A program made the translations under genes and the position numbers. Of a stretch of 64,000 bases of DNA, positions 5,359 through 54,932 are shown piece after piece. The stretch lies in NCBI GenBank assembly GCA_019638395.1, contig JAHBTX010000001.1, positions 682,001 to 746,000 of the forward strand. The letters run 5' to 3'. The DNA comes from Cyclobacteriaceae bacterium (GTDB taxonomy: Bacteria > Bacteroidota > Bacteroidia > Cytophagales > Cyclobacteriaceae). The notes under the pieces were generated by a model. That model did not search any database, was not told the origin of the DNA, and saw only the letters and a program-made list of their open reading frames with translations. The number at the start of each line of letters is the position of its first letter. Position 1 is the first letter of the stretch.

Positions 5359-5745
5359 ATGATCACAGAAATAACACAAGGAATAAAGGTTACAGTGGAG
5401 ACAGAGTATCAACCCTCGTACTCCAGCCCCAGCCAGTACCACTATGTGTTTACGTATCGCATCACAATCGAAAATCAAAGTGATTTTACTATTCAACTTT
5501 TGCGCAGACATTGGCATATTCATGATGCCGGCTTTTCTACACGCGAAGTAGAAGGTGAAGGAGTAGTAGGCCAGCAACCTGTATTGGAACCAGGCCAAAG
5601 TCATCAATACGTTTCGGGTTGCAACCTGAAATCAGGACTTGGAAAAATGGCTGGTACGTACCAGATGGAGCGCGTAGTGGATGGCGCCCGGTTTCGGGTG
5701 GCTATTCCGGAGTTTACGATGATCGCCCCGATCAGACTTAATTAA
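5359..5745 (+). CDS. apaG: ApaG family protein
   Basis: A 128-residue protein with the complete ApaG (FN3-like beta-sandwich) fold. It has the typical alternating strands YVFTYRITIENQS and LLRRHWHIHD, and the conserved core VEGEGVVGQQPVLEPGQ, YVSGC and MAGTYQM. ApaG has been linked to cobalt/magnesium resistance in enterobacteria, but its molecular role is unclear. The next gene starts 7 bp after the stop, which suggests a two-gene operon. Confidence 0.93.
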   Translation: MITEITQGIKVTVETEYQPSYSSPSQYHYVFTYRITIENQSDFTIQLLRRHWHIHDAGFSTREVEGEGVVGQQPVLEPGQSHQYVSGCNLKSGLGKMAGTYQMERVVDGARFRVAIPEFTMIAPIRLN

Positions 5746-36617: not shown

Positions 36618-36845
36618 ATGGATTTGACCGAAACCGAAAAACATGTTCTTCAAAGTTTGGTAAAGAAAGGAAGCATGGGTAACGTAATGGAATTTCTAAA
36701 CTGGCCGGCTGCTGAGTTTGACCGCGGCTTTGAGTTTGCCAACAACCTGCAGAATAAAGATTTGGTAAAGTTGCTTTATTCTAATTTTAACAAAAATCTG
36801 ATTGTGGTTGAATTAACTTTGGAAGGCATAAAGCATGGAAGCTAA
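36618..36845 (+). CDS. Small winged-helix-like protein
   Basis: A 75-residue protein beginning MDLTETEKHVLQSLVKKG. It has two helices and a wing-like C-terminal hairpin (LIVVELTLEGIKHG), recalling the winged-helix N-domains that precede PheRS-type proteins. No firm family is recognised. Its last 11 bases overlap the start of the phosphoesterase gene, so the two are co-translated. It is divergent from the AraC gene, with a 53-bp shared promoter region. Confidence 0.6.
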   Translation: MDLTETEKHVLQSLVKKGSMGNVMEFLNWPAAEFDRGFEFANNLQNKDLVKLLYSNFNKNLIVVELTLEGIKHGS

Positions 36846-37671
36846 ACTCAACCCAACAAACTCGCGCAGAAAATTTCTGAAAGGCTTTGCCTTTTCTTCC
36901 GCGTACCTGATTACCGGTGGACAATTTATTTCGGCAGCCGATATTTTAAGCAACCAAAAAAATGTTGTGTTGCGATTTGCAGTGGGTAGCGATAGTCATT
37001 ATGGTCAACCCGATACCGACTTCGATAAGTTCGTCAACGATTTTGTATCGCACATAAACAATTTTCACAAAGAACTTCCACTGGATGCTTGTGTTGTGAA
37101 CGGAGACCTGATTCACGATCAACCGGAATTAATGCCACAACTTAAACCGCATCTGGAAAAGCTAGTTGTTCCATACTGTGTAACGCAAGGCAATCATGAT
37201 CGCGTAAGCGCAACCCAGTGGCAGGAAACGTGGGGAGTACCGCTCAATTATGAAAAAATCTTCCGCAAGCAGGTTTTTCTGATGATGTCCACATCGAATG
37301 AAAAAGGCGAATACCTTTCACCTGATCTGAATTGGCTGGAGAAAAAGCTAAAGCAACATCGTAAGAAAAATATTTTTCTATTTCTACATATCGGTCAGCA
37401 AAAATGGACGCCCAACAGCATTGACAATCCGGCTTATGCCGATTTAATTCAAAAGTACCCGAATGTAAAAGCAGTTTTTCATGGCCATGATCACGATCAA
37501 GATGGCGAAAAAATGCTGGGTTCCATTCCACACCTGTACGACTCGCACATTGGCGGTAGCTGGGGCACCGCTTACAAAGGTTTTCGGATTGTAGAGTTAT
37601 TGAAAGACAACAGCGTGCAGACGTATGTGATGAATCCGGTGGAGAAATTTGATAAGGTCTATTATAAATAA
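36835..37671 (+). CDS. Tat-exported calcineurin-like metallophosphoesterase
   Basis: A 278-residue protein with a twin-arginine-type signal (SRRKFLKGFAFSSAYLITGG). The binuclear metal site of calcineurin-like phosphoesterases is seen in order: VGSDSHYG (Asp, His), VVNGDLIHD (Asp), TQGNHDR (Asn, His), FLFLHIGQ (His) and FHGHDHD (GHxH). The likely location is the periplasm or cell surface. The substrate is unknown. It is translationally coupled to the 75-residue protein upstream and convergent with the lipoprotein array. Confidence 0.9.
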   Translation: MEAKLNPTNSRRKFLKGFAFSSAYLITGGQFISAADILSNQKNVVLRFAVGSDSHYGQPDTDFDKFVNDFVSHINNFHKELPLDACVVNGDLIHDQPELMPQLKPHLEKLVVPYCVTQGNHDRVSATQWQETWGVPLNYEKIFRKQVFLMMSTSNEKGEYLSPDLNWLEKKLKQHRKKNIFLFLHIGQQKWTPNSIDNPAYADLIQKYPNVKAVFHGHDHDQDGEKMLGSIPHLYDSHIGGSWGTAYKGFRIVELLKDNSVQTYVMNPVEKFDKVYYK

Positions 37672-37767: not shown

Positions 37768-37984
37768 TTAGTCCGACTTCACATACTGTTTACTGGTGCC
37801 GTTGAGATAAACCACATAGTGGCCATTGGGTAATCCGTCTAAAATCTGCTTGGTAGCTTCTCCGCCTTCTTCAAGCATACCTTGCTTTACTACCTTTGAA
37901 TTGGTAAAATCTACCACTGCAAACTCATTACCAGCCATTAAAGACGAACCCCTGCAAAAGGCAAGTTGAGATTGAAATTCGCAC
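37768..37984 (-). pseudogene. Module fragment F4 (copy of the 3' end of the 42463-41318 gene)
   Basis: The minus-strand frame reads FCRGSSLMAGNEFAVV, then GLPNGHYVVYLNGTSKQYV and a KSD stop, homologous to the last roughly 70 residues of the large secreted protein at 41318-42463. There is no proper start. It lies directly after lipoprotein copy A4. Beyond its stop the usual spacer and an ATG follow, but that frame ends after three Lys codons, so a fifth lipoprotein gene seems to have been lost. Confidence 0.7.
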
Positions 37985-37993
37985 TAATGTGTA

Positions 37994-38653
37994 CTAAAAG
38001 GGCTCAGTTATCGTATATAAAAGTGCATAAGAGCCGCCAATACTTACGGTCTCATCATTTATTAATACCTGGGTACTGAAGGTTCCGCTTATTAGGTAAG
38101 TGGTAGAATATTTTGTATCATCAATGACAAAGTAATTCCAAATACTGATTCCGGCAAGCGTACTATTTGAAATATCTGGGGAAAAAATGTTGGTATTTTT
38201 TACAACTTGATACTCAACACCACAACGATCCTTCAAAACAAATGATGGCTGAAAAAAGTTAAAAGCTGTTTGCATCAATGAATCAGGAGTTAAAAGCGCC
38301 CGTTGTTCATTTAAGCTTGAGAAGAGGTCACTACTACGTTGCAATGATTTTAATTTGAACTCAAAAAAATCATTTTTATTTACTTTTACACACTTTTCAT
38401 TCTCGCATTGAAACCATTGTTCAATCCTATCATCTCTAAAATCATAAACCGTTCCTCTGAAGGAAAATTTGAAAAAACATTCCTGACAGGTAGATGTACT
38501 TGTATCTAATGAGGATTCATCTGTTGAGATGATAAAATCGCAGGGATCCCGTACCGCAGAAAGCTCTTCGTTACATGAAGCAAATAGCGCAAGCGAAGAA
38601 AAAATAAATATCTGGGCACTAAGCCTTATTATTCGAGCAGCTTTATTATACAT
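37994..38653 (-). CDS. Array lipoprotein copy A4
   Basis: A 219-residue lipoprotein with lipobox ALFASC (Cys 27). After the lipidated Cys come CNEELSAVRDPCDFI, a Ser/Thr-rich stretch, CQECFFKFSFRGTVYDF, a Cys pair around WFQCENEKCV, SLQRSSDLFSS, KDRCGVEYQV and a C-terminal beta-rich part (YLISGTFSTQVLI, GGSYALLYTITEPF). It shares its signal peptide almost exactly with A1, but its mid-region with A2, and lacks a six-residue GVNPLR-type insert found in the other copies. The family is unknown. It is probably surface or periplasmic. Confidence 0.75.
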   Translation of the reverse strand: MYNKAARIIRLSAQIFIFSSLALFASCNEELSAVRDPCDFIISTDESSLDTSTSTCQECFFKFSFRGTVYDFRDDRIEQWFQCENEKCVKVNKNDFFEFKLKSLQRSSDLFSSLNEQRALLTPDSLMQTAFNFFQPSFVLKDRCGVEYQVVKNTNIFSPDISNSTLAGISIWNYFVIDDTKYSTTYLISGTFSTQVLINDETVSIGGSYALLYTITEPF

Positions 38654-38666
38654 AACTGTTGCAATT

Positions 38667-38882
38667 TTAGTCCGACTTCACATACTGTGTACTGGTGCCA
38701 TTGAGATAACCCACATAGTGCCCCTTGGGTAGTCCATCTAAGATTTGCTCAGTTTCTTCAATACCTTCCTCAAGTTGGCCGCGCTTTACAATTGTTGAAT
38801 TACTTAAATTCAAAACAACAAATTTCATTACCCCCATCAAAGAGGAGCTCAGGCAAAAGGTAAACGTAAGACCACAAATCAT
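38667..38882 (-). pseudogene. Module fragment F3 (open, 71 codons)
   Basis: An open frame with its own ATG that matches the C-terminal end of the large secreted protein: LTFTFCLSSSLMG, then FVVLNLSNSTIV, LDGLPKGHYVGYLNGTS and a KSD stop. It lacks a signal peptide and follows copy A3. It is treated as a duplicated gene fragment, although it could be translated. Its stop overlaps a TAAAATTG word that may act as a -7 box for A4. Confidence 0.65.
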
Positions 38883-38906
38883 ATCGCTTACTGCTTACAA
38901 TGCATG

Positions 38907-39584
38907 TTAGAACAGCTCAGTTATAGTATATAAAAGCGCATATGAACCCCCAATGCTCTCCAATCTGTCTTCAACTAGTATTTGAGTACTAAAGGTTCCG
39001 TTAATTAAGTAATTGGTTGAATATCGTAGCGGATTAACACCATCATTTATTACGCTGAAATTCCAAACGCTTATCGATGTAATAGTGTTCCTTGACACAT
39101 CTGGAAAAAAAATATTAGTATTTCTAGCAACTTGATATTCAACACCACACCTATCTTTAATTTGAAATGACGGTTGAAGAAAACTAAAATCAGTTAGCAT
39201 AAGAGAATCAAGTGTTAGAAGTGCCCTTTGCTCTTTCAAACTTGAGAAAAGGTCACTACTTCGATTTAATGACTTAAATTTGAAATCAAATAATGCATTC
39301 TTATAAGTGATCAAACACTTTTCTTCCTCCTCACATCCGAACAAGGATTCAAACCTTTCATCTCGGAAATCATAAACCCTTCCTTGAAAGGAAAACTTAA
39401 AGAAACATTCATGACATGCTGTGCTTATGTCAAGAGAAACCTCATCAACTGACCGGATAAAATCACAAGGATCGCGTACATCTGGTACATCTTCGTTACA
39501 AGACGCAAGTAGGGCCATAGAAGATAAGGTAAGCATCTGTAAAATAAGCCTTGCTATTTGAGTTACTTTTTTACTCATAAACAT
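38907..39584 (-). CDS. Array lipoprotein copy A3
   Basis: A 225-residue lipoprotein with lipobox LLASC (Cys 29). A start at Met 3 is also possible. The mid-region (FIRSVDEVSLDISTACHEC, FSFQGRVYDFRDERF, KSLNRSSDLFSSLKEQRALL) is of the A1 type, while the signal peptide differs from A1 and A4. It has an acidic GCEEEEKC loop. The C-terminal half contains KDRCGVEYQVARNTNIF and NDGVNPLRYSTNYL. The gene is intact. Confidence 0.75.
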   Translation of the reverse strand: MFMSKKVTQIARLILQMLTLSSMALLASCNEDVPDVRDPCDFIRSVDEVSLDISTACHECFFKFSFQGRVYDFRDERFESLFGCEEEEKCLITYKNALFDFKFKSLNRSSDLFSSLKEQRALLTLDSLMLTDFSFLQPSFQIKDRCGVEYQVARNTNIFFPDVSRNTITSISVWNFSVINDGVNPLRYSTNYLINGTFSTQILVEDRLESIGGSYALLYTITELF

Positions 39585-39592
39585 TTCAAATT

Positions 39593-39788
39593 TTAATCCG
39601 ACTTCACATACTGCTTGCTAGTGCCATTACTGTAAACTACATAGTGCCCCTTGGGTAGTCCCTCTAAAATCTGGTTGCTTTCTTCCACACCTTATAGAAG
39701 TCCTTTCTTTACAATTTTTGAATTTGTTAAATCAAAAAAAAACAAATTGATTATTGCCCATTAATAACGGACCCCAAGCAAAGGTAAG
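39593..39788 (-). pseudogene. Degenerate module fragment F2
   Basis: A copy of the large gene's 3' end with at least two in-frame stops (one replaces the Glu codon after KGLL) and an altered 5' part. The end is still clear: QILEGLPKGHYVVYSNGTS and a KSD stop. It separates broken copy A2 from A3. Confidence 0.7.
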
Positions 39789-39795
39789 TCATGAA

Positions 39796-40467
39796 TTAAA
39801 GCGGTTCAACAATGTCAAAAAGTAATGAAAAAGAACCACCAATACTCTCAGATTTATTACCAATTAGGATTTGAGTACTAAAGGTTCCGCTAATCAAATA
39901 ATCTGTAACATATCGAGGTGGATTAACTCCATCATTGATGATCAAAAAACTCCAGACACTGATGCTTGTAATCGTGCTGTTTGAAACATCCGGAGAAAAA
40001 ACATTAGTATTCTTTGAAACTTGATACTCAACACCACAACGGTCTTTCAACAAAAATGATTGCTGAAAGAAGTTAATATCGGTTTGCATCAATGAATCGG
40101 GAGTTAAAAGTGCCCGCTGCTAATTCAAGCTTGAGAATAGGTCACTACTCCGTTGTAATGATTTTAATCTAAACTCAAAAAAATTATTCTTAGCTGTGAT
40201 TGTACACTTTCCTTCCTCGCAACCAAACCATTTTTCAATCCTATCGTCTCTAAAATCATAAACCTTTCCTCTGAAAGAAAATTTGAAAAAACATTCCTGA
40301 CAGGTAGATGTACTTGTATCTAAAGAGGATTCTTCTGTTGAGATAATAAAATCACAAGGATCCCGCACCGCTGGCATATCATCGTTGCACGAAGCAAGGG
40401 AACCAAGAAATAATATAAAAATTGCCGATAGAAACGTTTTTTTTATCGAAGGCATCTCTTTTAACAT
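39796..40467 (-). pseudogene. Array lipoprotein copy A2, broken by one stop codon
   Basis: The frame is continuous over 224 codons apart from a TAG at 40122-40120, in SSLN-stop-QRALL. At this place A3 has GAG (Glu), A4 GAA and A1 AAA, so one base change explains it. The N-terminal half has a different signal peptide (KKTFLSAIFILFLGSLASC, lipobox LASC) and an A4-type mid-region (STSTCQECFFKFSFRGKV). The C-terminal half has KDRCGVEYQVSKNTNVF and ends VEPL. The lack of other damage suggests recent inactivation or suppressible or switchable expression. Confidence 0.8.
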
Positions 40468-40480
40468 AGTCGTTTCAATT

Positions 40481-40636
40481 TTAATCTGACTTCATGTACT
40501 GCTTGCTGGTGCCATTGAAATAAACCACGTAATGGCCATTAGGCAGCCCGTCTAAAATCCACTTGGTTTCTTCCACACCTTCTTCGAGCAGTCCTTGCTT
40601 CACAATCTTTGAATTACTAAAACCTAAACGATAAAT
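40481..40636 (-). pseudogene. Module fragment F1, in frame with A1 after its stop
   Basis: A truncated copy of the large gene's 3' end that lacks the FCxGSxLMG part. It reads SNSKIVKQGLLEEGVEE, then LDGLPNGHYVVYFNGTS and a KSD stop. It continues in the same frame as A1 directly after the A1 TAA, with no further stop, so readthrough would add a module tail to A1. That is probably coincidence following a deletion. Confidence 0.65.
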
Positions 40637-41305
40637 TTAAAGAGGCTCCTCGATTTTATAAAGCAACAAATAAGAACCTCCAATGCTATTGGGTTTATTT
40701 TCAATCATCACTTGAGTGCTAAAGATTCCACTGATGAGGTAATGTGTAGAATATCGTAGAGGATTGACACCATCATCAATAATGTTGAAATTCCAAACAC
40801 TAATTCCGGTAACAGTGCTGTGCGAAATATCTGGAGAAAAAATACTAGTGTTCTTTGCAACTTGATATTCTCCACCACAACGGTCTTTCAACAAAAACGA
40901 TTGCTGAAAGAAACTAAAATCAGTTTGGATAAGCGAATCGGGTGTTAAAAGTGCTCGCTGTTTATTCAAGCTTGAGAACAGGTCGCTACTTCGATTTAAT
41001 GATTTTACGTTGAATTCAAAAAAAACATTTTTATAAGTAATTACGCACTTTCCATCCTCACACCCAAACCATTCTCCAAACCTTTCATCTCGAAAATCAT
41101 AGACCCTACCCTGGAATGAAAACTTAAAAAAACATTCATTACAGGCAGTACTTATGTCTAATGAAGCCTCATCAACCGAGCGAATAAAATCGCATGGATC
41201 GCGTACCTCGGGCATATCTTCGTTGCACGAAGTAAGGAAAGCAAGCGAAGAAAAAATAAATATCTGGGCACTAAGCCTTATTATTCGAACAGCTTTATTA
41301 TACAT
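40637..41305 (-). CDS. Array lipoprotein copy A1
   Basis: A 222-residue lipoprotein with lipobox AFLTSC (Cys 27). It contains CNEDMPEVRDPCDFIRS, ISTACNECFFKFSFQGRVYDF, FGCEDGKCVITYKN, SLNRSSDLFSSLNKQRALL, KDRCGGEYQVAKNTSIF and a beta-rich end, GGSYLLLYKIEEPL. It starts 12 bp after the stop of the large secreted protein, so it is in its operon. I recognise no named family. The conserved Cys residues probably form disulfides in an exported domain. Confidence 0.78.
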   Translation of the reverse strand: MYNKAVRIIRLSAQIFIFSSLAFLTSCNEDMPEVRDPCDFIRSVDEASLDISTACNECFFKFSFQGRVYDFRDERFGEWFGCEDGKCVITYKNVFFEFNVKSLNRSSDLFSSLNKQRALLTPDSLIQTDFSFFQQSFLLKDRCGGEYQVAKNTSIFSPDISHSTVTGISVWNFNIIDDGVNPLRYSTHYLISGIFSTQVMIENKPNSIGGSYLLLYKIEEPL

Positions 41306-41317
41306 AACTGTTGCAAG

Positions 41318-42463
41318 TTAGTCCGACTTCACATACTGCGTACTGGTGCCATTGAGATAAACCACGTAGTGGCCTTTTGGCAGCCCATCTAAAAGGCTCT
41401 TGGTATCTTCCGCATCTTCAAGCTGCCCTTCCTTCACAACCTTTGAATTAATTATATCGAATACAACAAACGTATTATCGCCCATCAAAAACGAGCCCTT
41501 GCAAAAGGTAAACGTAAGGTTGCAACTGGCATTGTAGGCATTAAAAGTTGAACACCCTGAGTTGATGGAAAAAGTCATGTTTTTGCCGCCATTGCTGGTG
41601 CTGCCCGATGTTTTTACCCACGTCCAGGAGCTTAAATACATCTCTACCTGGTTTGATCCGCCCGGAACCGTGTTAAATGTGTACAGCGGCCCCTGATTTA
41701 AAATACCGGTACAGTTTGGAAGCACCTGTACTGATTTGATCTTGTAATTGGTACTATTGCCGTTGCAGCCAGACCGTAAATTATAAGTAACATCAGACGT
41801 GCCAGTTAAGGATTCGGCCTTTAATGTAATAGATGTACTCGTGCTGCTAATTTTTGTGAAATAATTGAGATTGAAAAACCACCGTTCCTCATCCAACTGA
41901 AGATAAGACGGCAATGCTTGCCCGTTATTGGTTAGGGTCAGGGTAATATTCTGGCCCTGGTTTACCTGCGAGCCCCCGGAAACAGCTATGTTGGGAATGG
42001 CATCGTAGTATTGTTCATCGCCATCGCAGGCTAATGAGCCGGCATCGGCATAATAAGAGGTTTCCACATAGGGATACTGATCGAAGGTAAAGGCAAACCG
42101 CCCATCGTTAAGTTTTATTGCAGCATGCCCGGCTTCTAAAAATGCAACGGCCTTAGCCTGGCTAAGTGAACAAACCCTAATAAAATTCTGGTCGCCTATT
42201 ATAGTTGAACCTGTATAGCCAGGAAAATTTCCTTCGTTTGAAGGAAAACCCGATGATAAATTCACATTGTTATGGAGTAATGCCGCACGGGTATATTGGT
42301 AGCAGTTGTAGTTGATATTGAGTGGTTTTGTGTGCAGGTATGACCCCGGTGGATTCGCGCATCTTCTTTTAACATCTACGTTTACTGCGCTCATTAATAA
42401 AACGAGCAAAAGCAACCATGCAAAACCCTTGAACCATTGATAACTCATAATGAAATATACCAC
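41318..42463 (-). CDS. Secreted protein heading the lipoprotein array
   Basis: A 381-residue protein with a hydrophobic export signal (WLLLLVLLMSAVNV). A start at Met 6 (42448) is also possible. The N-terminal domain has NCYQYTRAALL and later EAGHAAIKLNDGRFAF, a Cys...His order that loosely recalls papain-like or CHAP hydrolases; no third residue can be assigned. A beta-rich, Ser/Thr/Asn-rich region follows. The last roughly 70 residues (FCKGSFLMGDNTFVVFDI to GLPKGHYVVYLNGTS and KSD) are the module copied four times downstream. The LPKGxYVVxL pattern near the end resembles type IX secretion tails. The function is unknown. Confidence 0.72.
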   Translation of the reverse strand: MVYFIMSYQWFKGFAWLLLLVLLMSAVNVDVKRRCANPPGSYLHTKPLNINYNCYQYTRAALLHNNVNLSSGFPSNEGNFPGYTGSTIIGDQNFIRVCSLSQAKAVAFLEAGHAAIKLNDGRFAFTFDQYPYVETSYYADAGSLACDGDEQYYDAIPNIAVSGGSQVNQGQNITLTLTNNGQALPSYLQLDEERWFFNLNYFTKISSTSTSITLKAESLTGTSDVTYNLRSGCNGNSTNYKIKSVQVLPNCTGILNQGPLYTFNTVPGGSNQVEMYLSSWTWVKTSGSTSNGGKNMTFSINSGCSTFNAYNASCNLTFTFCKGSFLMGDNTFVVFDIINSKVVKEGQLEDAEDTKSLLDGLPKGHYVVYLNGTSTQYVKSD

Positions 42464-42648: not shown

Positions 42649-43980
42649 ATGTTCGATAGTTTAAGTCTGAAGCTGGATAAGGCCTTTCAAACCCTGAAGG
42701 GCCAGGGAAGAATCACCGAAATCAACATTGCCACTACGGTAAAGGAAATCCGCAAAGCGCTGATTGATGCGGACGTTAACTATAAAGTAGCCAAAGAGGT
42801 AACAGACGAAATCCGCGAAAAAGCGCTGGGCCAGAACGTGCTTACTTCCATTTCGCCCGGCCAGTTGCTTACCAAAATAACCAACGATGAGCTTACCCTG
42901 CTGATGGGTGGCGAAAGTGAAGACATAAAAATTGAGGGCAACCCTGCCATTATTCTGATTGCCGGTTTGCAGGGCTCGGGTAAAACTACTTTCTCGGGCA
43001 AATTGGCCAACTACCTGAAACGCCAGGGCCGCCAGGTTTTATTAACAGCTTGCGATATTTATCGTCCCGCTGCGATTGACCAATTAAAAATTTTGGGCGA
43101 GCAGGTAGGCGTGGAAGTATATGCCGAACCTGAAAACAAAGACGCAGTAAAAATTGCGAAAGCTGCACTTGAACACGCTAAGAAAAATAATCATCGCGTA
43201 GTTATTGTCGATACAGCCGGTCGTTTGGCTGTGGATGAAGAGATGATGAACGAAATTGCCCGGTTGAAAGAAGCGCTTAAACCTTCTGAAACGTTGTTTG
43301 TGGTTGATGCCATGACAGGACAAGATGCAGTGAACACTGCCAAAGCATTTAACGAACGCCTGAATTTTAATGGTGTAGTACTTACCAAAATGGATGGCGA
43401 TACCCGTGGTGGTGCAGCTTTATCTATTCGCAGGGTAGTTGAGAAACCCATTAAGTTTATCAGCTCGGGCGAAAAGATGGAAGCCATCGATCGCTTTTAC
43501 CCTGATCGTATGGCCAGCCGGATTTTGGGCATGGGCGATGTGGTGAGTTTGGTTGAAAAGGCACAACAAACTTTTGATGAAGAAGAAGCGCGCAGGCTGA
43601 ATGCCAAGATGCGCAAGAACCAGTTCGACTTCAACGATTTTTTATCGCAACTGGATCAGATCAAAAAAATGGGTAATATGAAAGACCTGTTGGGCATGAT
43701 ACCCGGTATGGGCAAGGCTATAAAAGATGTGGACATTGATGATAATTCCTTCAAACCCATTGAGGCGATTATTCGCTCCATGACTTTGGATGAAAGACAA
43801 AATCCGGATAAGCTTAACTCCAGTCGCAAAACCAGAATTGCAAAAGGAAGTGGTACTACTATTCAACAAGTAAACCAACTGTTGAAACAGTTTGAAGATA
43901 TGCGCAAGATGATGAAGACCATGAACAAGATGGGTGGCGGTAAGCGCGCATTGAATGCGTTGAATCCTTTTGGAAGGTAA
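42649..43980 (+). CDS. ffh: Signal recognition particle protein Ffh
   Basis: The SRP GTPase that delivers nascent membrane proteins to the Sec translocon. The 443-residue protein has the N domain helices, G1 GLQGSGKTTFSGKLA, ACDIYRPAAIDQL, VDTAGRLAVD, TKMDGDTRGGAALS and the G-domain closing loop. The Met-rich M domain (KMGNMKDLLGMIPGMG, MTLDERQNPD, SRKTRIAKGSG, MRKMMKTMNKMGGGK) binds signal peptides and SRP RNA. It is full length for the family. Confidence 0.97.
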   Translation: MFDSLSLKLDKAFQTLKGQGRITEINIATTVKEIRKALIDADVNYKVAKEVTDEIREKALGQNVLTSISPGQLLTKITNDELTLLMGGESEDIKIEGNPAIILIAGLQGSGKTTFSGKLANYLKRQGRQVLLTACDIYRPAAIDQLKILGEQVGVEVYAEPENKDAVKIAKAALEHAKKNNHRVVIVDTAGRLAVDEEMMNEIARLKEALKPSETLFVVDAMTGQDAVNTAKAFNERLNFNGVVLTKMDGDTRGGAALSIRRVVEKPIKFISSGEKMEAIDRFYPDRMASRILGMGDVVSLVEKAQQTFDEEEARRLNAKMRKNQFDFNDFLSQLDQIKKMGNMKDLLGMIPGMGKAIKDVDIDDNSFKPIEAIIRSMTLDERQNPDKLNSSRKTRIAKGSGTTIQQVNQLLKQFEDMRKMMKTMNKMGGGKRALNALNPFGR

Positions 43981-49715: not shown

Positions 49716-52700
49716 ATGGAGCTTGTTATGAGGGTGAACGAATACAAAGTTATCAAACCACGAAAAAAATGGTTCTTGCTGCTGCTCCTGCCGCTACAGG
49801 TTTTTGCACAAGATCTTTCAAACCATAATTGGTACTTTGGAAACTCCGTTAATGGTATCCGCTTTAACCGTGGTACCCATGTAGCACAAGCTGTTACCAA
49901 TCAGGCCACACCGTTTGCGCAAGGCGGAGCAGCCGTAGCAACTGATCCGGCAACAGCCAACTTATTATTTTATACCGATGGCATTCGGGTTTACGATGCC
50001 ACCCATACATTAATGCCAAATGGTACAGGCTTAGTTGGTCAACCCAATTCTAATCAGCCAGTGGCCATATCGCCCATGCCCGGCCAGACTAACCGCTGGT
50101 TTATATTTACCAATACGGCAAGTTTTACAACCGGAGGAACCATTAGCCGATCGGCTGTAGATATGAATCAATTTGGTAATGCTGTGTTTCCTGCACCTGC
50201 ATTGGGTGTTGTAGAGGCGGCCAAGAATGTGCCTCTGCCCGTGTTAACAAACCGATCGGAAGGGATGATTATTGTACCCCATGCCAACAAAACCGACTTC
50301 TGGTTGATTACACACGAAAATGGTACTCAAACATATTCCGCAACCCGCATTGATGCTTCAGCCACTTTTCCAACCATCAACTCATCTGGTTTAGGGTTCC
50401 CCATGTCGGTAGCTAATTTTTCATATCACGAAGCTTCAGGTAAACTTGCCGTAGCACCGCAATCCAATAATGTTGATGCGCTTATACTCAATTTCGATAA
50501 CACAAACGGGCTTTTCAGTTTCGATCGATTAATCATTAACTCGGCCGTAACCGGTGCTACTAACAATCAGGCCATTTACGATATTGAATGGAACAATCAG
50601 GGCCGATACTTGTACTTGTCGCGCCATGGCGATACCGGCATTAATGCCAATGTATTTCAATACGATTATCTCAACCCAAGCATAACGCTGGCTCCCGTAA
50701 TTACTCCGGCCATCTTCAGAAGCTATGGTTTACAAATGGCTCCTGATAGTGCTATTTATCACCTGTATCAGGCTACAGCCGGAGGGCCATTCCTTGCCGG
50801 CCGACTTACCAACACCGATACTGTAGCTGCTGCCGTTATCAATACGCAAGCTTTGTTTGGCGGATTAAATTTTAACGGCACACAATTTCCGGCCTTCAAA
50901 CCCCGCGATAGCGTAGCGATACAAGTTTCATTTATTGCACAGGGCACTTGCCAGAATTCTCCTACCAGTTTCTTTCCCACCGTATTACCCAATGCCGATA
51001 GTTTGCGTTGGGATTTTGGCGATGGTTCCGGATCGGGTAATTGGTCGCCCGTTTATACATACGAAACAGCCGGAACCTTTAATGTTACCTTGCGGGCTTT
51101 TTATCGGGGGCAAACACAATCCGTTACCCAACCCGTTACGATTAATCCCTTTGCATTGCAACTACAATTGGTGCAAGATACAACCGCTTGCCGCGATGAG
51201 TTTCCACCACCGCGCGGATCGGCCACGGCCGCCACACAATTCAGAGTACGCGTAAACGTACAAGGCGGTACTCCCGCTTCCATCGTTTGGTCTAATGGCG
51301 ATTTGGGTGATACGTTAACTCCTGATTCGGCCGGGTATTATTATGTGGTAGTTACAGATGCCACCGGGTGTTCTGCCTATGCTGGTGTAAATGTTAAAGA
51401 GTATGGTTTACAAGACCAGCGATCGAACGTCTGGTATTTTGGTAACAGAGCCGGTATTGATTTTAACGAAGCCCCACCGGTAGCGCTTAATAACAGTGCC
51501 ATGGATGCACCCGAAGGTTGTGCGATTGTGTGCGATCGGAATGGTGATGTAATTTTTTATACCGATGGCGATAAAGTTTTTGATAAAACCGATACGGAAA
51601 TAGACAACGGTATAGGAGGCGATCCGGCTGCCTCCCAATCAGCCATTATTGTACCGGTACCAGGCGATGAAACCTTATATTATATTTTCACTACACAGGC
51701 TGTAACCGGTACGGGCCTTTTTGAAGTTCGCTATTCACTTTTTGATTTAAAACTCAACGCAGGCAATGGTGCGTTACAACAAAAAAATGTGTTGTTGTTT
51801 TCACGAAGCACCGAACGCATTACGGCTAATGAACGTTGGCTGATTGTGCACGAGTATGGCAACAACGTATTTCGGTCATACCCTATTTCAGCCGAAGGTA
51901 TTGGCCAACCGGTGTATTCAGAAGTTGGCTCTGTTCATTCCTTTCAATCGGCAGTTAATGCCGAAGGATATATGAAACTGGGGCCACGTAATAATGTAGC
52001 CGTTGCACTCTCCACACCCGGCACCAGTAACCTGGTAGAATTATTTACACTCGTTGACAGTACAGGCCGGTTAACTAACTTTCGGCAGATTAATTTGAAC
52101 GAACCCAACGGCCAGGTTTACGGAGTTGAATTTTCGCCCGGTGGTAGCAAACTTTTCGCCACCGTTAAAGGGTCGCCAACCCCATCGCAAATTTTTGAGT
52201 ACTTTCTGGATTCGTTAGACAGACCTTTCTTCAAGCAACGCATCAACCAGAATCTGGAATTGGGCGCCATTCAGCGTGCACCCGACAATCAGCTTTATGT
52301 AGCCATTAATGGCAGCAACGTGTTGGGCACCATTCTGGCCAACGAAGATACCACGCAGTTATCTTCCTTTAATCCATCGGGTTTTACATTGGCAGCAGGT
52401 ACTAATAGCCGGTTGGGCTTACCCAACTTCATTCAGTTTCAAGGTAATGCTTTTGGTGGCCCCGGATTTACCTTTGCGGGAGTTTGCGTAGGCGATTCCA
52501 CCCAATTTACAGGCACCGCTACCGATCCCATTGATAATTTTCTTTGGTCATTTGGCGATGGTGGCAGCAGCACTGAAGCATCGCCCGCCCACTTGTATGC
52601 AGCAGCCGGAACTTATACCGTCTCTATGCGATTAACCAACCGGTGCGGATTAGATACAACTATCGTTCAACAGGTGCGAATATTTAATCCACCAGCGCCT

Positions 52701-54932
52701 CCTTCCATTCCAGGAGCTATTGCATTGTGTACCGGTGCGGTAACATTAGATGCAAATGTTCCCAATACTCCGGGGTTAACGCATCAATGGTCGAATGGCG
52801 AAACCACGCAAATTGTTGTAATTAACAACCCCGCTTTTATTTCCGTTGTAAATACCGATGTAAATGGTTGCACATCGACAGCCCAAAGTATTGTAGTGGA
52901 TAATCGGCCGCAGATTAACCTGGGGCCCGACCTCACCATCTGCGAAGACAATGCCACACCAACGTTAGATGCGTTAAATCCGGGAGCCACCTATCAATGG
53001 CGTATTAACGGAGTAAACGCAGGCACTACACAAGTGCAGGGTGTAGATACTTCAGCTCCAGGAGTATTTACCTACGAAGTTACCGTAACCGATCCGTTTA
53101 CCACTTGTTTTACAGTTGAGGATAAAGTTTACACTATAAATGTTTCGCCTGCTTTTGTGCTTACTGGAACCAACCCTACAACGTGTGGTACCCCCGATGG
53201 TACCATCACCTTACAACTCAATGCCTCTACACCTGCAGGTGGTCCGCTTTACTCCTACTTCTTAACCGGGCCTAACAGTTTTAATCAACAAGGTATCGAT
53301 CAAAGTGCACCTTCCACCATCGGCCCAATTGGCGGCCAACGGGCGGGTACTTTCTCGGCTATTGTTACCGATCAGATTTCGGGTTGCACATTATCCAGTT
53401 CATTTGCATTAACCGATGTAGCGTTAACAATTACTCCGGTTGTAACCGATCCATGTATTGTAGCTTATTCGGTAACAGTAGCAGATGGAACTGGCCCTTA
53501 CCAGTTTACACTCACCAATACTGCTACTAACCAGGTGTTTGGCCCTTCCCTTCCCGCCACGTCACCATTTTTAACCACCACCATCGCTCCGACATTGCTG
53601 GCCGGAAATTACATTTTAGAAGTAGAAGATGCTGGTGGCTGCATTGATACACGAACTATTGCCGTTGCGCCCAACCCACCCGTGGCATTTACAATCGATG
53701 CAAGCGACCTTTGCGATGCATCACCTTCGCTTACTGCATCGGGAACTGCCACCGCTTACTCGTGGGTGGCAAGTGTGCCCGGTAGTATTGTGGGCCCTGC
53801 TACCGGAGCTACTATTCAATTACAACCAGGGGCCGGAGTAGTTACGTTTACCGTTACCGGATCGGGTGCAGCTGGTTGCCCGTCCACACAAACTATTACT
53901 GTTAATATCACCAATGTTATTACACCCACCTTTACCCAAAGCGATGCGTGTGCCGATCAGGTAATATTAGCAGCACAACCAACCGGCACGTTTACCTACC
54001 GGTGGTATGTAAATGGAAGTGCAACCCCGTCAGCACTGGGGCAGCAAATAAGTCTTACAACGGCAAATAACGGCAGCTCGTATGTGTTAGAAGTACTTAA
54101 CACCCTTAATGGTTGTGTTACACGTTCAGCACCACAAACCGTAAACATAATTGGTGCAATTACGGCAGCCTTAGCGGGCACACCTGCTTGCGATGATAAT
54201 CAACCCTTTACACTTACTGCTACTACCAATGCAACAGGTGTTGCCTATGCCTGGTTCCGGAATAATACCCCGCTGGCTGGTCAATCGGCAGCTACCATTA
54301 ACCAAACCGATGCAGGTATATACAGAGTGGAGATCAGCAAGAACGGTTGTATGACGCCAGCCGAAATACAGGTAATTAAATTACCCGTACCACAAGGCGA
54401 TCTTCCTGACCGGGTAATTATTTGTAACGATCCGGATAATACCGATCCTGAAACATCAACTGTTGATCTTGATCCAGGAGTATTTCAAACATACAATTGG
54501 TTTAAGAATGAGCTTACGCTCGGTTATACAAACCGGGTATTAACAGCAGACAGTGAAGGTTTTTACGATGTGGATATTACCAACTCGTTTGGTTGCGTTT
54601 CGCGCGATCGCACCGAAGTAATCAATGATTGTATTCCCAAACTGGTAGCTCCCAACGCCTTTCGGCCTACCAGCGGAATAAGCGATAACAAAAACTTTTT
54701 TGTTTATACGTTTTTCATTACCGACAATTTCCAGGTGCTGATTTACAATCGTTGGGGCGAACTCGTATTCGAATCGAAAGACAAGAATTTTCAATGGAAC
54801 GGAGGCTATAACAACAATGCCGGTCAACCGTTACCACCTGGCACGTATGCCTATGTATTCCGGTATGTAAGTTCATTCCGGCCGGAAAAAGGAATTCAGG
54901 AAAAGCGTGGTGGCGTGGTGTTGATCCGGTAG
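49716..54932 (+). CDS. Giant secreted adhesin-like protein with type IX type B sorting domain
   Basis: A 1738-residue protein with a signal peptide (WFLLLLLPLQVFAQ). Two similar long units follow, each a propeller-like region starting NWYFGN (residue 39) or VWYFGN (residue 573) and closed by a PKD domain (WDFGDGSG at residue 432, WSFGDGG at 944). A long Thr/Gly-rich chain of Ig-like repeats fills about residues 1010-1640. The CHU_C/gliding-motility C-terminal domain starts PNAFRPTSG (residue 1646) and contains FQVLIYNRWGELVFES and PLPPGTYAYVFRY. It is probably exported by the type IX system with the divergent PorP/SprF protein and stays at the surface or is released. Confidence 0.93.
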   Translation: MELVMRVNEYKVIKPRKKWFLLLLLPLQVFAQDLSNHNWYFGNSVNGIRFNRGTHVAQAVTNQATPFAQGGAAVATDPATANLLFYTDGIRVYDATHTLMPNGTGLVGQPNSNQPVAISPMPGQTNRWFIFTNTASFTTGGTISRSAVDMNQFGNAVFPAPALGVVEAAKNVPLPVLTNRSEGMIIVPHANKTDFWLITHENGTQTYSATRIDASATFPTINSSGLGFPMSVANFSYHEASGKLAVAPQSNNVDALILNFDNTNGLFSFDRLIINSAVTGATNNQAIYDIEWNNQGRYLYLSRHGDTGINANVFQYDYLNPSITLAPVITPAIFRSYGLQMAPDSAIYHLYQATAGGPFLAGRLTNTDTVAAAVINTQALFGGLNFNGTQFPAFKPRDSVAIQVSFIAQGTCQNSPTSFFPTVLPNADSLRWDFGDGSGSGNWSPVYTYETAGTFNVTLRAFYRGQTQSVTQPVTINPFALQLQLVQDTTACRDEFPPPRGSATAATQFRVRVNVQGGTPASIVWSNGDLGDTLTPDSAGYYYVVVTDATGCSAYAGVNVKEYGLQDQRSNVWYFGNRAGIDFNEAPPVALNNSAMDAPEGCAIVCDRNGDVIFYTDGDKVFDKTDTEIDNGIGGDPAASQSAIIVPVPGDETLYYIFTTQAVTGTGLFEVRYSLFDLKLNAGNGALQQKNVLLFSRSTERITANERWLIVHEYGNNVFRSYPISAEGIGQPVYSEVGSVHSFQSAVNAEGYMKLGPRNNVAVALSTPGTSNLVELFTLVDSTGRLTNFRQINLNEPNGQVYGVEFSPGGSKLFATVKGSPTPSQIFEYFLDSLDRPFFKQRINQNLELGAIQRAPDNQLYVAINGSNVLGTILANEDTTQLSSFNPSGFTLAAGTNSRLGLPNFIQFQGNAFGGPGFTFAGVCVGDSTQFTGTATDPIDNFLWSFGDGGSSTEASPAHLYAAAGTYTVSMRLTNRCGLDTTIVQQVRIFNPPAPPSIPGAIALCTGAVTLDANVPNTPGLTHQWSNGETTQIVVINNPAFISVVNTDVNGCTSTAQSIVVDNRPQINLGPDLTICEDNATPTLDALNPGATYQWRINGVNAGTTQVQGVDTSAPGVFTYEVTVTDPFTTCFTVEDKVYTINVSPAFVLTGTNPTTCGTPDGTITLQLNASTPAGGPLYSYFLTGPNSFNQQGIDQSAPSTIGPIGGQRAGTFSAIVTDQISGCTLSSSFALTDVALTITPVVTDPCIVAYSVTVADGTGPYQFTLTNTATNQVFGPSLPATSPFLTTTIAPTLLAGNYILEVEDAGGCIDTRTIAVAPNPPVAFTIDASDLCDASPSLTASGTATAYSWVASVPGSIVGPATGATIQLQPGAGVVTFTVTGSGAAGCPSTQTITVNITNVITPTFTQSDACADQVILAAQPTGTFTYRWYVNGSATPSALGQQISLTTANNGSSYVLEVLNTLNGCVTRSAPQTVNIIGAITAALAGTPACDDNQPFTLTATTNATGVAYAWFRNNTPLAGQSAATINQTDAGIYRVEISKNGCMTPAEIQVIKLPVPQGDLPDRVIICNDPDNTDPETSTVDLDPGVFQTYNWFKNELTLGYTNRVLTADSEGFYDVDITNSFGCVSRDRTEVINDCIPKLVAPNAFRPTSGISDNKNFFVYTFFITDNFQVLIYNRWGELVFESKDKNFQWNGGYNNNAGQPLPPGTYAYVFRYVSSFRPEKGIQEKRGGVVLIR

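What the first reader, a model, noticed from the sequence alone, without database searches (positions are those of the whole stretch)
37768..42463. Lipoprotein cassette array behind a secreted protein: candidate variable surface system
A secreted protein gene is followed by four lipoprotein paralogues, each separated by a copy of the secreted gene's own 3' end. The units are of similar length, face one way and are partly broken. This layout would allow recombination to swap lipoproteins next to the head gene, or to replace the head gene's tail, like silent cassettes in antigenic variation. I know of no described system with this structure.
Basis: partly seen in the sequence, partly recalled or inferred. 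Interest (0 to 1): 0.75.

Follow-up and report, generated by a model that had tools for sequence, protein, structure and literature searches.

The report
Recombining lipoprotein array behind secreted protein
In a Bacteroidota bacterium, a gene for a secreted protein is followed by four related lipoprotein genes, each followed by a copy of the end of the first gene; related species carry the same layout with different copies, so the units are exchanged by recombination, but the lipoproteins look like working proteins rather than silent spares.

Summary
The layout is real: head gene 42463-41318 (minus strand), then four lipoprotein paralogues A-D, each followed by a copy of the head's 3' end. 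Lipoprotein B and tail B carry stop codons. No convincing match was found for head, lipoproteins or tails in the protein, structure, plasmid, phage and viral collections searched. Clear relatives lie in 3 other genomes of the same genus. Mosaic lipoproteins, head tails identical over 101-115 nt to a downstream tail, and low dS against flanking genes show conversion and horizontal exchange.

'Silent cassettes' is poorly supported: A, C and D are open, with start, signal peptide and lipobox, and A-D show low omega (0.14-0.25) at high dS (0.84-1.6). My reading: a secreted protein with a type-IX-tail-like end plus a repertoire of lipoprotein partners, most likely effector and immunity; function is unproven and no catalytic fold could be shown. 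Precedents exist for the layout (MafB/MafI, tspA/tsaI) and the recombination (lpl, esaG). New variant of a known kind.

The parts
41318..42463 (-). Head gene, 381 aa from GTG 42463 (ATG at 42448 more likely): signal peptide, N-terminal domain with conserved Cys and His, Ig-like middle, C-terminal type-IX-tail-like end
   Evidence: signal peptide and Ig-like middle by eye and weak hits
40637..41305 (-). Lipoprotein A, 222 aa, intact
40481..40636 (-). Tail A: head 3'-end copy, last 45 codons open
39796..40467 (-). Lipoprotein B, pseudogene with one internal TAG stop
39593..39795 (-). Tail B: last 32 codons open, TAA stop before them; nearest match of the tail of the truncated head in G303 (4 differences in 81 nt)
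38907..39584 (-). Lipoprotein C, 225 aa, intact; nearest counterpart of the lipoprotein at the same locus of G303
38667..38906 (-). Tail C, open over 71 aa
37994..38653 (-). Lipoprotein D, 219 aa, intact; mosaic of A (first ~75 nt) and B (about alignment columns 120-240)
37768..37993 (-). Tail D, terminal copy not followed by a lipoprotein; last 45 codons open
36835..37671 (+). Flank: metallophosphatase (PF00149), one side of the site
42649..43980 (+). Flank: Ffh, SRP GTPase (identified by reading the sequence), other side of the site

Best explanation
A two-gene module (secreted protein with a type-IX-tail-like C-terminus, then a lipoprotein 12-13 nt downstream) whose second half, [head 3' end + lipoprotein], has been multiplied in tandem. 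Shown by sequence comparison: units recombine through shared tail and lipoprotein sequence, making mosaics; copy number, and the tail and lipoprotein next to the head, differ between loci and species; alleles have moved between species. Shown: the lipoproteins are divergent (dS 0.84-1.6) with low omega, so they most likely act as proteins. Inferred: they are a repertoire of surface or periplasmic partners of the head and of its relatives in neighbouring strains, most likely immunity proteins against a secreted antibacterial effector; the tails are carried along because the founding duplication began inside the head gene, and they serve as homology for further exchange.
For: Module: 5 of 5 intact heads (window; G319 C67, C36, C4, C81) have an open lipoprotein 12-13 nt downstream. 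Of 4 loci with a broken or missing head, 3 keep at least one open lipoprotein (G303, G319 C60, G313) and one (C38) has a stop; left out of this count: G319 C90, whose head side is cut off by the contig end, and the remote copies in G279, G335 and G307. G303: head 5' 338 nt 92.6% to the window head; its tail 83% to tails B and C against 74.7% to the window head's tail; last 81 nt 4 differences from tail B, 19 from the head; lipoprotein 88.7% to C, 70-75% to A, B, D. Mosaic D: max-chi2 42, permutation p 0.0002; runs test p 0.002. G319: 224 nt identical between lipoproteins 1 and 3 of C67; head tails identical over 115 and 101 nt to a downstream tail. Window vs G303 dS: head N part 0.12, lipoprotein C 0.40, against 0.96 (ffh), 1.32 and 1.68 (two neighbours). 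Omega 0.14-0.25 among A-D. Tail against 30 of the genome's 39 Por_Secre_tail stretches: profile P 1.8e-4, 0 of 150 column shuffles as good.
Against: No toxin or immunity family matched; the N-domain showed no similarity to the genome's two NlpC/P60 proteins (P 0.41; 44 of 100 shuffles as good), and its conserved cysteines may simply be disulfides. Both structure models are poor (pLDDT 49 and 50). The cassettes carry no variable toxin domain, unlike classical polymorphic toxins. The one-sided loss rests on 9 loci, one in a genome (G313) with ambiguous bases. Pfam PF18962 does not reach the head by itself. Low omega could in part come from conversion rather than selection on each copy.
Confidence: 0.42

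Rival explanations
1. Ordinary tandem duplication of a surface lipoprotein: an operon gene was copied together with the end of the gene before it, and the copies evolve partly in concert and partly apart, with no role in antagonism.
For: Low omega on A-D, tails of varying length with stops and deletions, 5 of 6 copies broken or cut short in G313; nothing in the data needs an antagonistic role.
Against: Patchy presence, 4 of 62 genus genomes; horizontal exchange; lipoproteins kept where heads are lost; several loci in one genome, G319.
Confidence: 0.32
2. Variable surface system: lipoproteins are swapped next to the head to change the cell surface, for instance against phages or grazers.
For: Head-adjacent unit differs between species; conversion tracts; acidic residues after the lipobox cysteine resemble the surface-export signal of Bacteroidetes (by eye; PMC5080379, passages).
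Against: Downstream copies A, C and D are open genes with own start; whole-gene omega 0.14-0.25; pN/pS near 1 only in the signal peptide, at most 0.47 in the mature part, though single sites were not tested; promoter scan uninformative (9 sites against 15.1 in shuffles).
Confidence: 0.13
3. The conserved last ~27 codons of the tails are themselves functional (translated mini-protein or translation-coupling leader for each lipoprotein), which is why a tail precedes every lipoprotein.
For: By my classification the last 27 codons are in frame with the head and free of stops in 13 of 13 tails that precede a lipoprotein and in 1 of 4 terminal tails (Fisher p 0.006; 7 of 7 vs 1 of 4 without G313, p 0.024; criterion chosen after seeing the data); variation mostly at third codon positions.
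Against: Some tails lack a usable start codon or sit out of frame with what precedes them. Changes private to one tail are 7 non-synonymous to 8 synonymous, against 0 to 3 in four heads: fewer than neutral, more than in heads, which fits conversion from working heads plus relaxed drift. No covarying RNA pairs.
Confidence: 0.1

Closest known systems
MafB/MafI genomic islands of Neisseria (PMC4287609; passages read)
   Same: Secreted head protein, small gene directly downstream, then head C-terminal fragments plus small gene, some without start codons; restricted to one genus
   Different: MafB-CT fragments carry alternative toxin domains; here the copied tail is nearly constant and the downstream lipoprotein varies; no sequence relation was found or sought beyond the family searches
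tspA/tsaI and esaG/tipC T7SS immunity arrays (PMC9484751; abstract, passages and Discussion read)
   Same: Tandem non-identical paralogues linked to a secreted toxin, recombination through conserved blocks (esaG, tipC), pseudogenes, and a tspA 3' fragment inside the tsaI array
   Different: Firmicutes and T7SS; there one head fragment, here one after every copy; little recombination reported for tsaI; immunity function unproven here
S. aureus lpl tandem lipoproteins (as described in PMC9484751)
   Same: Tandem lipoprotein paralogues with copy-number change by recombination in a conserved block
   Different: No head-gene fragments between copies are described there
rAID orphan immunity arrays of Bacteroidales (PMC12247911; passages read)
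   Same: Co-oriented short genes with conserved intergenic sequence, same phylum
   Different: rAID has a predicted tyrosine recombinase and orphan immunity genes against T6SS effectors; here one family behind its own head gene

Membership tests
Silent-cassette antigenic variation | Donor copies lack own start or coding integrity | tested here: not met
   A, C, D are open from ATG with signal peptide and lipobox (signals by eye); expression itself not tested
Silent-cassette antigenic variation | Diversifying selection in variable parts | tested here: inconclusive
   Omega 0.14-0.25 among A-D; 20-codon windows of the mature part at most 0.47, signal peptide about 0.7-1.1; no single-site test
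Silent-cassette antigenic variation | Recombination into one expressed copy | tested here: inconclusive
   Head-adjacent unit and head tail differ between species and loci; expression unknown
Silent-cassette antigenic variation | Variants within one population | not testable with these tools
   No reads held
Polymorphic toxin-immunity locus (MafB/Rhs type) | Secreted head protein with small gene directly downstream | tested here: met
   5 of 5 intact heads, gap 12-13 nt
Polymorphic toxin-immunity locus (MafB/Rhs type) | Cassettes carry alternative C-terminal toxin domains | tested here: not met
   Tail copies are the same end of at most ~88 aa, no family match for the two tails scanned
Polymorphic toxin-immunity locus (MafB/Rhs type) | Toxicity and protection | not testable with these tools
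   Needs bench work
T9SS cargo with type A C-terminal domain | Por_Secre_tail PF18962 above cut-off | tested here: not met
   No PF18962 hit for the window head or four other heads
T9SS cargo with type A C-terminal domain | Profile similarity, in a genome with such cargo | tested here: met
   P 1.8e-4, probability 48%, 0 of 150 shuffles; 39 PF18962 matches in own genome, 34 above cut-off
Recombining tandem paralogue array (esaG/lpl kind) | Mosaic genes and copy-number change at orthologous loci | tested here: met
   window 4 vs G303 1 copy; G313 6 vs G319 C36 3 copies
rAID | Adjacent tyrosine recombinase | tested here: inconclusive
   None recognised by reading ORFs of 200 aa or more at 20-60 kb; no recombinase profile was run

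The most novel reading that the evidence does not exclude
A T9SS-linked antagonism module in free-living Bacteroidota in which the 3' end of the effector gene, its presumed secretion tail, is the repeated exchange platform: recombination at it re-pairs a constant effector body with alternative tails and alternative surface lipoproteins, giving each strain its own repertoire.
Probability: 0.25. Interest if true: 0.68.

Novelty: new variant of a known kind. Interest (0 to 1): 0.45.

Why it matters
If the partner reading holds, it would show a T9SS-type secreted protein whose tail, not its active part, is the unit multiplied with a lipoprotein, and would give a compact system for following how paired genes are re-assorted between species. 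Even without it, the comparison of window and G303 is a clear natural example of a head gene standing before a different cassette at an orthologous locus.

Tried and rejected
Structure: AlphaFold models of head (pLDDT 49.4) and lipoprotein A (50.1) were too poor, so no fold search was run. Catalysis: the N-domain has an invariant Cys and His that recall papain-like enzymes (my recollection), but Pfam with five N-domains, PDB sequences (none for the N-domain; for the whole head only antibody light chains, best E 0.008, taken as chance or Ig-like similarity) and a comparison with the two NlpC/P60 proteins of the genome gave nothing. Weak lines below cut-off taken as chance: a clostridial peptidase family for lipoprotein A (E 0.022), DUF3955 and TubZ-like for tail C (0.022, 0.03), Ig-type families for heads (0.028-0.44). 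RNA element in the tail: 0 of 15 predicted pairs with changes on both sides. Promoter-like sites 9 against 15.1 in shuffles; terminator-like sites 7 against 3.5, with no regular place between units. Mobile origin: head against plasmids and phages, lipoprotein alignment against viral contigs, no match. Wider search: N-domain in 390 order and 395 phylum genomes gave the own genome plus one weak hit, E 0.002; lipoprotein A in 295 family genomes found only the own genome, a draw without the three relatives that one search found.

Full report
What is there. On the minus strand, a 381-aa gene (42463-41318) is followed by lipoprotein paralogues A (41305-40637), B (40467-39796), C (39584-38907) and D (38653-37994), each followed by a copy of the head's 3' end, the last ending at 37768. 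In the whole genome these proteins occur only here, apart from one weak head match (E 0.057) with stops. B has one TAG; tail B a TAA. The lipoprotein genes have 35-37% GC, against 42.6% for the window and 43.5% for the head.

The proteins. Head, lipoproteins and tails that were scanned have no match above a curated cut-off in Pfam or NCBIfam and none in PADLOC (5 proteins); the lipoprotein profile has no PDB sequence match and the head profile only antibody light chains at E 0.008 or worse. By eye the head has a signal peptide, an N-terminal domain with conserved cysteines and a histidine, and an Ig-like middle. The tail aligns with the C-terminal two thirds of the Por_Secre_tail domain, using 30 of the 39 stretches found in the same genome: P 1.8e-4, probability 48%, with 0 of 150 column-shuffled controls as good and four other stretches of head and lipoprotein at P 0.11 or worse. 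It lacks the start of that domain and does not reach the Pfam model, so I call it tail-like, not a member. The lipoproteins have a lipobox followed by a polar and then acidic residues, which fits the minimal surface-export signal described in PMC5080379 (passages); this was not tested.

Who else has it. Of 62 genomes of the genus, the head alignment finds heads or tails in 4 and the lipoprotein alignment finds 7, of which G279, G335 and G307 are remote or weak single copies without a head match (the surroundings in G307 were not looked at). G319 has heads at C67, C36, C4 and C81, a shortened one at C60 and a broken one at C38, with 3, 3, 1, 1, 1 and 1 lipoproteins behind them, the third of C36 and that of C38 broken; a further lipoprotein at C90 has its head side cut by the contig end. 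G313 has six lipoprotein copies, five broken or cut short, six tails and no head, in an assembly with ambiguous bases.

Copy number and order at orthologous loci. The window array lies between a metallophosphatase gene and ffh. Of 60 genus genomes, 12 have that phosphatase; 2 of the 12 have the array there (own, G303), 7 have ffh within 1.3 kb and no head or lipoprotein match, and 3 show no ffh in the about 1.5 kb held. G303 has a truncated head, one lipoprotein and a frameshifted tail. A second orthologous pair shares an AsnC/SufB flank (by reading): G319 C36 with head and three lipoproteins, G313 with six and no head; a downstream stretch is identical over 127 nt.

Recombination. Lipoprotein D matches A at 98% in its first 60 alignment columns and B at 95-97% in windows starting at columns 120-180. 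Max-chi2 for D as mosaic of A and B is 42, p 0.0002, the floor of 5000 permutations; of 12 recipient/parent sets tested (not independent, not corrected), 4 reached that floor, 5 had p 0.004-0.015 and 3 were above 0.05. In G319, lipoproteins 1 and 3 of C67 share 224 identical nt; the C67 and C36 head ends share 115 and 101 identical nt with a downstream tail; C67 and C36 lipoproteins share runs of 95 and 80 nt across contigs. In G303 the head's first 338 nt are 92.6% identical to the window head, but its tail is closer to tails B and C (83%) than to the window head's tail (74.7%), its last 81 nt differ at 4 places from tail B and 19 from the window head, and its lipoprotein is 88.7% to C. So the unit next to the head differs between the two species. 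Direction cannot be told without an outgroup.

Age and movement. Among A-D dS is 0.84-1.6 and omega 0.14-0.25. In 20-codon windows pN/pS is about 0.7-1.1 in the signal peptide, 0.40-0.47 around codons 80-110 and lower elsewhere. Between window and G303, dS is 0.12 for the head N part (dN 0.07) and 0.40 for lipoprotein C, but 0.96 for ffh and 1.3-1.7 for two neighbours: the simplest reading is exchange of array alleles after the species parted. G376, nearest of the four relatives compared by ffh (dS 0.36 over 86 codons), has two other ORFs (305 and 98 aa) at the site.

The tails. Their upstream parts are truncated at different points, yet the last 27 codons stay in frame with the head and free of stops in 13 of 13 tails that precede a lipoprotein (two of the six in G313 are near-identical duplicates) and in 1 of 4 terminal tails (p 0.006; without G313 p 0.024). 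The classification is mine and was made after seeing the data. Variation there is mainly at third positions (797 of 1143 pairwise differences among 13 tails: 12 internal, one G313 duplicate left out, plus terminal tail D). Two readings fit: repeated conversion from working heads, or a function of the tail itself. Changes private to one tail are 7 non-synonymous and 8 synonymous, against 0 and 3 in four heads (the tail class includes the tail of the broken G303 head); the neutral expectation is 71-78% non-synonymous (p 0.05 and 0.008). That is less than neutral and more than in heads, so it leans to conversion plus relaxed drift but does not settle it.

Function. The module is constant (5 of 5 intact heads with an open lipoprotein 12-13 nt downstream), while 3 of 4 loci with a broken or missing head keep an open lipoprotein. 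This one-sided loss, the patchy and horizontally exchanged distribution, and the arrays are what effector-immunity pairs show; the sample is small and no toxic domain was found, so I put the functional reading at 0.42.

Known systems. Nearest are MafB/MafI islands (PMC4287609, passages), T7SS immunity arrays with a tspA 3' fragment, the Rhs example cited there and lpl lipoproteins (PMC9484751, abstract, passages, Discussion), TANFOR toxins with T9SS cargo in their gene neighbourhoods (PMC7073777, passages), papain-like toxin signatures (PMC3482391, passages) and rAID (PMC12247911, passages). None of the passages seen describes a constant head tail beside every lipoprotein. Ten paper searches listed no title that concerns this family; the library holds open-licence papers only.

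Noticed in passing
L037:5506-8640 (G319 C81): The divergent head-lipoprotein pair sits between a truncated AraC-type gene (named by reading) and a full copy: 300 nt at 5506 and 8000 are 94% identical, and two 61-nt remnants of the gene's middle lie just after the lipoprotein, as if the module had landed in a duplicated gene.
   Followed up: partly
L076:2331-3572 (G376): At the site of the window array this relative has two other ORFs (305 and 98 aa) on the opposite strand to ffh, so the phosphatase-ffh interval may be a spot where genes come and go.
   Followed up: partly
L038:4380-5104 (G303): The metallophosphatase next to the array is broken in G303: six stops in the matched stretch.
   Followed up: no
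L090:4979-6939 (G279): A remote lipoprotein relative stands 90 nt after a gene that reads like a secreted trypsin-type peptidase, a different partner from the head of the window.
   Followed up: no
window 49716-54932: A 1738-aa protein with PKD-type repeats by reading, possibly gliding or T9SS cargo, lies 7 kb from the array; not analysed.
   Followed up: no
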